Positions 2,028 to 57,671 of a stretch of 64,000 nt of DNA are shown here, piece after piece. Below the pieces are notes generated by a model, which was not told the DNA's origin, searched no databases, and was given only the letters and a program-made list of their open reading frames with translations. Position 1 is the first letter of the stretch, and each line of letters starts with the position of its first letter. The translations under genes and the position numbers were made by a program. The stretch is from Clostridia bacterium (lineage in GTDB: Bacteria; Bacillota; Clostridia; Oscillospirales; CAG-272): contig JAFVTI010000035.1 in NCBI GenBank assembly GCA_017503325.1, positions 62,001 to 126,000 on the forward strand, in the 5' to 3' direction.

Positions 2028-2046
2028 GCGAAGCGCATATACGCAT

Positions 2047-2590
2047 AGCCGAACGGGAGTCGAACCAAATTGGTTTTGACGTGCAGATTTGTCCGATCCC
2101 TTCATCTTTTCCCTTGGACATATTGCCTATATGCCCTGCGGGAAAAGCTTTTGGGCTCAAAAAAATCTGCTGCGTCAAAACTGCTTGCACCCGCCGGCGA
2201 ATGAATTTTTGATAGATTTTGGGGCGATTTTGCGAAGTAGCATAACCGAAGAAAGTCAAATCCATACGGTTTTGAGTGACAAATATCCGCATTTGCTGCA
2301 GATAAAATTCTCGCAATATGATATATTGGTTCGCATTTTCTCTTTGCATCTGCATAATATTTGCTCACTCAAAACTGCGAAGCACCCTCCGGCGTTGCAA
2401 TTTTTGATGGATTTTGTCGAAGCAAGATACGCATCTTGCAAGGCGAGTTTCGGCACAAGACACGAAAATTGCTCGTCGCAGGGCGTATGATTTGACTTTC
2501 TTCGGTTATGACCATCTTGCGAGTGAAAGCGCGCCGAAAGATGCGAAAATGCATCGTCGTCGGGCAATTCGGTTCGATTCCCGTTCGGCT
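2047..2590. repeat. tRNA-arm-ended palindromic element, nested pair (copy A)
   Basis: Fills most of the gap after the GH36 gene, starting 19 nt past its stop. Outer arms are AGCCGAACGGGAGTCGAACC (2047-2066) and its complement at 2571-2590 with one mismatch. A second element is nested inside at 2241-2510, with its own perfect arms ATAACCGAAGAAAGTCAAAT (2242-2261) and 2490-2509. Each copy contains a long internal hairpin: 2073-2090 pairs with 2163-2181 in the outer copy and 2269-2279 pairs with 2365-2375 in the inner one. Without the insert the outer copy is about 274 bp, close to the 279-bp copy at 46252. There is no credible ORF. Confidence 0.85.
2241..2510. repeat. inner nested copy of the palindromic element
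   Basis: A 270-bp diverged copy of the outer element, inserted near the tip of the outer copy's right-hand hairpin. Its arms aligned with the outer arms share CCGAA and the following GGTTTTGA, but the central bases differ on both sides in a matching way. Internal stems also differ: GTTTTGAGTGA at 2269-2279 with TCACTCAAAAC at 2365-2375, where the outer copy has GTTTTGACG with CGTCAAAAC. Confidence 0.75.
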
Positions 2591-2624
2591 AACTCTTTTA
2601 CTTTTGTAATAACAGTTAACTAAT

Positions 2625-3506: not shown

Positions 3507-3533
3507 GGTAAAAAAAACAGGAGCACGGAGAGT

Positions 3534-3569
3534 AGCCGAACGGGAATCGAACCGAATTGCCGTTCGGCT
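3534..3569. repeat. solo end of the palindromic element
   Basis: 36 bp. The first 28 bases are the reverse complement of the right end of copy A (AGCCGAACGGGAATCGAACC, then GAATTGCC), closed directly by GTTCGGCT. It looks like an element whose interior has been lost. Confidence 0.6.
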
Positions 3570-3794
3570 AGCCCTTGAAATGGATCCACAAAAACTGCCA
3601 GGCAGAGGATCGGCTGCAGTAACCAATGTTTGCGCTTGCGAGCAACATCAAACTTATTAGCATATATCATGTACAAGAAATTTGGGAGTAATAAAGATAT
3701 TCATGACAATTTGCTTCCTTGGAAAGCATTGAGTGGCGATTTAACGGAATTTTCAGAAGTGCGTAACAAGTGGATTTATGCATGATGTAAAAAC
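3570..3794. other. AT-rich intergenic DNA, nothing recognised
   Basis: Between the solo element end and the tandem hairpins there is AT-rich sequence. The short reading frame crossing it has no ribosome site and no recognisable protein features. Confidence 0.5.
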
Positions 3795-14971: not shown

Positions 14972-15082
14972 AGTCCGCGGGAGCGTCCCGGGACGAAAGT
15001 TACATATCTTGCGAATAAAAGCACGCCGAAAAATGCGAAAATGAATCGCCCTCGGGCAATTCGGTTCGGCTCCCGTGCAGCT
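14972..15082. repeat. reduced copy of the palindromic element in an operon leader
   Basis: The right 80 bp (about 15003-15082) match the right end of the copies at 2047 and 46252 (AAAATGCGAAAATG, CGGGCAATTCGGTTCG, CTCCCGTGCAGCT). The left end (14972-14995) keeps only GGGAGC of the opposite arm. The operon promoter ends at 15096, so the whole element would be transcribed as 5' leader of the exonuclease-DUF2007-thiI message. Confidence 0.65.
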
Positions 15083-15095
15083 ACACAATCATATC

Positions 15096-46195: not shown

Positions 46196-46225
46196 CGTAG
46201 GGGCGATCAGTGATCGCCCGCTACA
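46196..46225. repeat. short GTAGGGGCGATC-type hairpin repeat
   Basis: GTAGGGGCGATCA and TGATCGCCCGCTAC form a stem of about 13 bp with few mismatches. It is a single-hairpin intergenic repeat, similar in sequence style to the 34843-34945 arms. Confidence 0.55.
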
Positions 46226-46251
46226 AATTATGATAGGTTTCATATACGCTT

Positions 46252-46530
46252 AGCCGAACGGGAGTCGAACCAAATTGGTTTTGACGGGCAGATTTGTCCG
46301 ATCCCTTCATCTTTCCCCTTGGACATATTGCCTATATGCCCTGCGGGAAAAGCTTTTGGGCTCGAAAAAATCTGCTATGTCAAAACTGCATAGCACCCGC
46401 CGGCGAATGCATTTTTGATAGATTTTGGTGTGATTTTGCGCAGCAAGATACAAATCTTGCAAGCGAAAGCACGCCTAAAGATGCGAAAATGCATCGTCGT
46501 CGGGCAATTCGGTTCGACTCCCGTTCGGCT
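46252..46530. repeat. tRNA-arm-ended palindromic element, intact copy B
   Basis: 279 bp. The ends AGCCGAACGGGAGTCGAACC (46252-46271) and 46511-46530 are perfect 20-bp complements. Internal stems: GTTTTGAC with GTCAAAAC (46278-46285/46379-46386), GCAGATTT with AAATCTGC, CTTTCCCC-like with GGGAAAAG, GCAAGAT-acaa-ATCTTGC and ATGCGAAAATGCAT. It ends 8 nt past the pepF stop. About 85 percent or more of it matches the outer copy at 2047 by eye. Confidence 0.85.
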
Positions 46531-46538
46531 ATACAAGA

Positions 46539-57477: not shown

Positions 57478-57508
57478 AAGGACAATTTCGCCCGCGCACG
57501 GGCTTGCT

Positions 57509-57662
57509 TATTCTTTCCCATCCGGACTTTCTCGCGTAAGCGAAAGCTTGCGCGTATACCGTCGGTCAAGGAATCTCACCTTGTCGGCCCTTGCCTTTGC
57601 AAGAGTTTGCAGACTCTCCGTTTTCGGACTCACTGCCGGTATGGAATCTCACCAATTCTCAA
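57509..57662 (-). ncRNA. FMN riboswitch (RFN element)
   Basis: Conserved RFN boxes on the minus strand in order: GGTGAGATTCC then ACCGGCAGTGAGTCCG; GGTGAGATTCC-TTGACCGACGGTATA; and AGTCCGGATGGGAAAGAA. Two GGTGAGATTCC-type segments with the ACCGRCRGT pair are diagnostic of the aptamer. The variable arm (GCGCAAGCTTTCGCTTACGCG) is a hairpin. It controls ribU, and by spacing possibly the six genes behind it, and should turn them off when FMN is plentiful. Confidence 0.93.
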
Positions 57663-57671
57663 AAATAATCA

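What the first reader, a model, noticed from the sequence alone, without database searches (positions are those of the whole stretch)
2047..2590. A nested pair of tRNA-arm-ended palindromic elements with co-varying arms
Outer arms (CCGAACGGGAGTCGAACC type) and inner arms (CCGAAGAAAGTCAAATCC type) differ at many sites, yet each pairs nearly perfectly with its own partner. Internal stems change the same way: GTTTTGACG/CGTCAAAAC outside, GTTTTGAGTGA/TCACTCAAAAC inside. Paired changes in independent copies imply selection on DNA or RNA folding, not mere decay. The right arm reads like a tRNA T-arm plus acceptor strand (GGTTCGATTCCCGTTCGGCT). One element has inserted into the loop region of another, showing that it moves without an encoded transposase. 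Together these point to a structured mobile or regulatory RNA family that I cannot name.
Basis: partly seen in the sequence, partly recalled or inferred. Interest (0 to 1): 0.72.

Follow-up and report, generated by a model that had tools for sequence, protein, structure and literature searches.

The report
Ancient palindromic jumping DNA without transposase
These are two nested copies of a roughly 280-letter non-coding jumping DNA element that inserts at the letters TA, folds into the same two-lobed palindrome in many gut Clostridia although its sequence has changed by about half, and is moved by an enzyme that nobody has yet identified.

Summary
Window 2046-2591 is a ~280-bp palindromic element (type A) with a second, diverged element (type B, 2243-2508) inserted at a TA in the loop of A's apical hairpin. 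A single A copy lies at 46251-46531, a 38-bp remnant at 3533-3570 and a half element at 15001-15083. All are TA-flanked. One A copy has a clean empty site with a single TA in a sister species (97% identity, no gaps). The superfamily spans the bacterial class: 22/345 order-level and 18/393 class-level genomes carry it. Of 57 full copies, 52 are 276-281 bp, with different terminal repeats but the same fold. On 35 sequences at 52% mean identity, 250 compensatory events fall on the predicted pairs, against 7-34 for slid controls. A.C mismatches are about as frequent as G.U, so pairing is kept in DNA rather than in one RNA strand. The tRNA-like end is limited to some subfamilies. No Rfam match, no autonomous partner and no IS630 or DDE_Tnp_1 transposase was found in ten carrier genomes. 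Best reading: a MITE-like non-autonomous TA-target transposon, unusually old and constant in length, mobilised in trans by an unidentified enzyme.

The parts
2046..2591 (+). Outer element, type A, with its flanking TA duplication; interrupted by the type B element
   Evidence: Terminal arms 92% complementary; same composite 95-96% identical at G000:C53:5538 and C9:55656
2046..2242 (+). Type A, left part: TA, terminal repeat, left hairpin lobe, core, first strand of apical hairpin
2243..2508 (+). Inner element, type B (266 bp, 10-bp internal deletion relative to the other B copies), inserted at TA
   Evidence: Arms 100% complementary; CM R1 97.2 bits; alignment; other B copies at G000:C41, C51, C45
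2509..2591 (+). Type A, right part: second strand of apical hairpin, rest of right lobe, right terminal repeat, TA
3533..3570 (+). 38-bp TA-flanked remnant: nearly complete left terminal repeat joined to about 11 bp of the right end
   Evidence: Sequence; exact terminal-repeat match G000:C9:65533
15001..15083 (+). Half element: right half of type A starting at the TA of the apical loop
   Evidence: BLAST match G000:C9:77006-77082, CM R1 35.1 bits, sequence
46251..46531 (+). Complete single type A element (281 bp with TA at both ends), intergenic, just past the stop of an M3 peptidase gene
   Evidence: Arms 96% complementary, CM R1 155 bits, neighbouring genes; G002:C20 lacks the element at the orthologous place
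46251..46277 (+). Left terminal inverted repeat of the single A copy
46505..46531 (+). Right terminal inverted repeat of the single A copy (the tRNA T-arm-like end)
46278..46386 (+). Left hairpin lobe (GGTTTTGACG...GTCAAAAC)
   Evidence: Consensus fold with two-sided changes
46396..46504 (+). Right hairpin lobe with conserved core CACCCnnCGG...ATTTTTGATRGATTTTG
46443..46460 (+). Apical hairpin GCAAGATACAAATCTTGC; its loop TA is where B inserted in the composite

Best explanation
A non-autonomous DNA transposon (MITE-like). Shown: it is a multi-copy, ~280-bp palindrome with TA at both ends, and at one site a single TA of the empty target has become TA-element-TA. Copies sit at many unrelated places, inside one another, and the composite of two elements has itself spread. 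Shown: the base-paired plan (terminal stem plus two hairpin lobes) and the length of 276-281 bp are kept across the class while the sequence, terminal repeats included, has changed by about half. Inferred: an enzyme supplied in trans, probably a TA-duplicating cut-and-paste transposase not present in the searched genomes or not of the searched families, recognises the ends. Inferred: because pairing is kept with no preference for G.U over A.C, what matters is palindromy of the DNA, most likely extrusion of hairpins or a cruciform (or folding of either single strand during replication) that brings the two ends together and is part of what the enzyme recognises, rather than an RNA product.
For: Own genome: 8 single A copies, 3 A(B) composites, 3 single B copies, remnants. 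All 48 elements located by script at the core motif are TA-flanked (the script required TA-bounded arms, and the few where it first chose an inner TA were re-bounded). Clean empty site: copy G000:C43:5386 against G002:C185, 97% over 327 bp, no gap, single TA. Empty orthologous loci, less exact at the junction: the window 46251 copy against G002:C20, the 47-bp mini against G003:C61 and a B copy against G003:C40 with TATATA. Target logo: TA only, at most 0.2 bit elsewhere. Class-wide reach: R1 in 22/345 order genomes and 18/393 class genomes. Independent boundary test: CM hits have TA-ended inverted ends mostly 275-280 bp apart, against 0 of 608 control windows. Lengths: 52 of 57 are 276-281 bp. 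Covariation. DNA rather than RNA.
Against: No autonomous element with these ends was seen in 295 genomes of the family (only the first places per genome are listed) or in G464, which has 42 ends. The usual TA-duplicating family IS630 (PF13358) and PF01609 are absent from ten carrier genomes, so the proposed enzyme is unidentified. Full-length MFE folds lean to one strand (43 of 57, mean -6 kcal/mol; distant members 21 of 31, p = 0.016), which keeps a single-strand role possible. GC of type A is about 0.49, not AT-rich like typical MITEs.
Confidence: 0.8

Rival explanations
1. A structured non-coding RNA (riboregulator or guide RNA, for example a bridge- or omega-RNA-like guide) carried on a mobile element; the pairing is selected in the RNA.
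For: Very strong fold and compensatory changes; strongly conserved unpaired core positions; weak lean of the + strand in MFE.
Against: G.U no commoner than A.C in conserved pairs (75 against 71 cells; 94 against 103 events); no Rfam match, and only a weak sub-threshold one (E = 0.008) to a relative; no promoter- or terminator-like site inside the 46251 copy; no guided target beyond TA.
Confidence: 0.12
2. A mobile palindrome whose arm matching is produced by mutation, not selection: quasipalindrome correction (template switching copies one arm from the other). This can be true together with the best explanation.
For: Equal G.U and A.C intermediates fit copying in DNA; frequent internal deletion remnants show that the palindrome is replicated with difficulty.
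Against: Mismatched and internal-loop positions are conserved across the class rather than erased, lengths of both lobes are constant, and core bases outside pairs are invariant.
Confidence: 0.3
3. A tRNA-derived element (a SINE-like retroelement, or an element that captured a tRNA 3' end).
For: Ends of types A, D and E match the tRNA-Glu 3' end at 16-17 of 20 against a background 99th percentile of 12-13; the tRNA-Glu gene is among the few non-element hits of the end pattern.
Against: ARAGORN finds no tRNA in the element; a complete T stem is not formed in type A; subfamilies with the same fold and length lack the motif; the clean empty site with a single TA and the inverted ends fit DNA transposition, not retrotransposition.
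Confidence: 0.05
4. A REP/RAYT- or attC-like hairpin DNA moved as single strand by a HUH (Y1) transposase or an integron integrase.
For: Palindromic hairpins, no own gene, and a weak strand lean. Y1_Tnp genes exist in 10 of 16 carriers.
Against: Y1_Tnp is absent from G464, G129 and G351, which carry several to many copies; a TA present once in the empty site and on both sides of the filled one is not the IS200/IS605 pattern (general knowledge of that family); both strands are constrained alike.
Confidence: 0.08

Closest known systems
RUP elements of Streptococcus pneumoniae (PMC3049150)
   Same: Short palindromic non-coding repeat with terminal inverted repeats, target duplication and strong fold; pneumococcal repeats are reported inserted into one another (review PMC10969869)
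   Different: RUP is ~107 bp, described from pneumococci and relatives, and has ends like IS630-Spn1; here 276-281 bp, spread over a class, no matching IS found
ERIC and Correia (CREE) elements (review PMC10969869; TA target from general knowledge)
   Same: TA-target, imperfect palindromes in intergenic DNA, folding predicted, many copies
   Different: Different length, sequence and host range; no class-wide two-lobed plan described
bcr1 of the Bacillus cereus group (listed in PMC2267715, citing Okstad 2004)
   Same: Mobile non-coding repeat with a conserved predicted secondary structure
   Different: ~150 bp, Bacillus cereus group only; details not read here
IS630 / Tc1-mariner-derived MITEs
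   Same: TA duplication, inverted terminal repeats
   Different: DDE_3 transposase absent from the ten carriers searched; ends not matched to any IS630 element here

Membership tests
MITE (as characterised in PMC3049150 and PMC10969869) | Terminal inverted repeats | tested here: met
   control
MITE (as characterised in PMC3049150 and PMC10969869) | Target site duplication on insertion | tested here: met
   TA; clean empty site; logo
MITE (as characterised in PMC3049150 and PMC10969869) | Highly base-paired secondary structure | tested here: met
MITE (as characterised in PMC3049150 and PMC10969869) | Small, multi-copy, no own transposase | tested here: met
   276-281 bp; copies; ORFs touching the copies run past their ends or overlap both strands; coding potential was not tested further
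MITE (as characterised in PMC3049150 and PMC10969869) | AT-rich (typical, not defining) | tested here: not met
   GC about 0.47-0.49 for type A
MITE (as characterised in PMC3049150 and PMC10969869) | Derived from or mobilised by a known IS with the same ends (usual, not defining) | tested here: not met
   No long element with these ends found; families PF13358, PF01609 absent
IS630/Tc1-mariner group | TA target duplication | tested here: met
IS630/Tc1-mariner group | DDE_3-type transposase acting on these ends | tested here: not met
   PF13358 absent in 10 of 10 carriers
Structured RNA family (Rfam) | Match to a curated family | tested here: not met
Structured RNA family (Rfam) | G.U tolerated over A.C on one strand | tested here: not met
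Structured RNA family (Rfam) | Expression as a discrete RNA | not testable with these tools
   no RNA data held
tRNA-derived element | Ends homologous to a tRNA in all subfamilies | tested here: not met
   distant ends
REP/RAYT system | Y1 transposase in every carrier | tested here: not met
   absent in 6 of 16 carriers, including G464, G129 and G351

The most novel reading that the evidence does not exclude
An ancient, class-wide lineage of mobile DNA with no genes that evolves as its own replicator: a fixed ~279-bp, two-lobed palindrome recognised mainly by its folded DNA shape and TA ends, moved by a still unknown, possibly host-borne, structure-reading enzyme.
Probability: 0.3. Interest if true: 0.85.

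Novelty: new variant of a known kind. Interest (0 to 1): 0.6.

Why it matters
The prokaryotic MITEs in the papers consulted are mostly confined to a species, genus or family and are usually tied to a known insertion sequence. Here the same gene-less element keeps its length and two-lobed pairing plan across many families of a bacterial class while its sequence, terminal repeats included, drifts to about 50% identity. That means long-term constraint on the folded DNA itself and a mobilising activity present, or repeatedly re-acquired, across the class. It makes a concrete question testable: which enzyme moves it, and does it read shape rather than sequence. The high copy number also breaks MAG assemblies at these elements.

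Tried and rejected
Rfam at gathering and at permissive thresholds: nothing credible (best sub-threshold TD-1, E = 0.008, on a relative). Plasmid and phage collections: no match; the type A/D/E end: 0 hits in IMG/VR; type B: 2 contigs, one with the element between phage structural genes and a melibiase gene, so probably near a prophage edge. Search for a long autonomous partner: pairs found only at ~270-280 bp or mini distances. IS630, DDE_Tnp_1 and Y1 transposases as drivers: first two absent, third patchy. Guided-target idea (bridge RNA): no target consensus beyond TA. Crude ORF-based test of insertion relative to genes: unreliable, because it called both window copies intragenic although they lie between genes, and was discarded. 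Some spacer letters were typed by mistake at the head of the joined-flank query; they do not affect the matches used, which were realigned from the loci. Paper searches for a described relative found none.

Full report
1. Observation. The nest is real. The outer arms 2047-2072/2565-2590 are 92% complementary, the inner arms 2241-2262/2489-2510 100%, and the single copy at 46252-46530 96%. Single-strand folding of the 46251-46531 copy beats 200 dinucleotide shuffles by z = -13.2 (RNA +), -11.8 (ssDNA) and -12.7 (RNA -). ARAGORN and Rfam find nothing in it.

2. Copies. The own genome (2.70 Mb, 54 contigs) holds about 8 single type A copies, three A(B) composites (95-100% identical, with different flanks), three single B copies, and remnants. 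The three composites mean one nesting event followed by spread of the 545-556-bp composite, so the usual 280-bp length is not an absolute limit for movement. Related species have further copies, including a third type (C) inserted into A (G003:C1) and into B (G002:C191). Many MAG contigs end inside an element, as expected for a dispersed repeat.

3. Boundaries and target. In the alignment of copies the boundary is TA|GCC...GGC|TA. Copy G000:C43:5386 has a clean empty site in G002:C185: 97% over 327 bp, no gap, a single TA. The window 46251 copy and the C28 mini have orthologous loci without the element, and a B copy has an empty TATATA locus. Over 60 sites only the TA is conserved, at most 0.2 bit elsewhere; B copies often sit in TATATA. 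B entered A at the TA in the loop of the apical hairpin. The type A half elements in G000 (C4:7365, C9:77006) begin at or near that same loop TA.

4. Reach. A core pattern scan of 84,980 species genomes gave 78 stretches. Where the titles name a source they are ruminant-gut Clostridia/Oscillospiraceae MAGs. A covariance model of the right half (R1) hit 22 of 345 genomes of the order and 18 of 393 of the class, in many families. The ends were not used to choose these distant hits beyond the model's right end, yet most show TA-ended inverted repeats spanning 275-280 bp, with different sequences such as TAGGGTGAGCAATTAAACTTGA, TAAGCATTGGGGAGTCGAACC and TAGCCTAACGCTTCCAATTTAAAC. The same search at displaced places gave one pair with score 16 or more in 608 windows, and none of that length. 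Of 57 full copies 52 are 276-281 bp.

5. Structure and covariation. The consensus fold is a terminal stem, a left lobe, a tiny hairpin and a right lobe. On 26 copies, 55 of 94 pairs have two-sided changes, 96.1% of cells pair, and the covariation score is 0.424 against 0.168 in shuffles and 0.07-0.14 when slid. On a tree there are 64 compensatory branch events against 1-6 for slid partners. On 35 copies thinned below 90% identity (mean identity 0.52) there are 250 against 7-34. The structures were predicted from the same sequences, so part of the excess over slid controls is expected, but not a factor of seven or more.

6. DNA or RNA. If a single RNA strand were selected, G.U should be tolerated far more than A.C (general knowledge). 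It is not: 75 against 71 cells, 37 against 44 events, class-wide 5.0% against 3.8% of cells and 94 against 103 events. The left lobe leans to A.C (3 G.U against 22 A.C events) and the right lobe to G.U (17 against 8), which I cannot explain. Full-element MFE leans to the + strand in 43 of 57; orientation was assigned by the model, so this lean may be partly built in. My reading is constraint on palindromic DNA, with quasipalindrome correction as a serious partial rival.

7. tRNA likeness. Types A, D, E and that of G464 match the tRNA-Glu 3' end at 15-17 of 20, above background, but other subfamilies do not. It is a property of some ends, not of the element. The tRNA set compared was small (6 distinct tRNAs).

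8. Who moves it. No long element with these ends was found in the family search (295 genomes; only the first places per genome are listed) or in G464. IS630 (PF13358) and DDE_Tnp_1 (PF01609) are absent in ten carriers; Y1_Tnp is patchy. MAG incompleteness and other transposase families remain open.

9. Verdict. A MITE-like, TA-target, non-autonomous element: the RNA reading is not supported, while the mobility and covariation are confirmed. New are the class-wide reach, the fixed length with a covarying two-lobed palindrome at about 50% identity, and the missing partner.

Noticed in passing
window ~46198-46225: A short inverted repeat (GTAGGGGCGATCAGTGATCGCCCGCTAC) beside the element; its arm occurs at dozens of places in G001-G003, often as inverted pairs about 75 bp apart: another dispersed palindromic repeat family.
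   Followed up: no
G000:C28:28101-28147, G003:C17:63874, G003:C62:26446, G002:C411:4086, G001:C295:5695: Five 47-bp TA-flanked minis of identical size (both ends joined at a short shared repeat) at different loci in four species: either recurrent deletion at the same short repeat or minis that move themselves.
   Followed up: partly
G000:C51:169089-169367 (L039): A B copy lies directly beside a tRNA-Arg(CCT) gene.
   Followed up: no
L209 7279-7555 (IMG/VR contig): A B copy on a contig with phage portal, head and internal virion genes on one side and a melibiase gene on the other, probably near a prophage edge.
   Followed up: partly
G464 (L241-L250): Several solo or 31-bp remnants of terminal repeats with no partner, suggesting frequent internal deletion of the palindrome.
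   Followed up: partly
window 57506-57670 (-): FMN riboswitch, 78 bits.
   Followed up: no
left and right lobes of the element (e.g. window 46278-46386 and 46396-46504): Opposite wobble lean: left lobe A.C 22 against G.U 3 events, right lobe G.U 17 against A.C 8; unexplained.
   Followed up: partly
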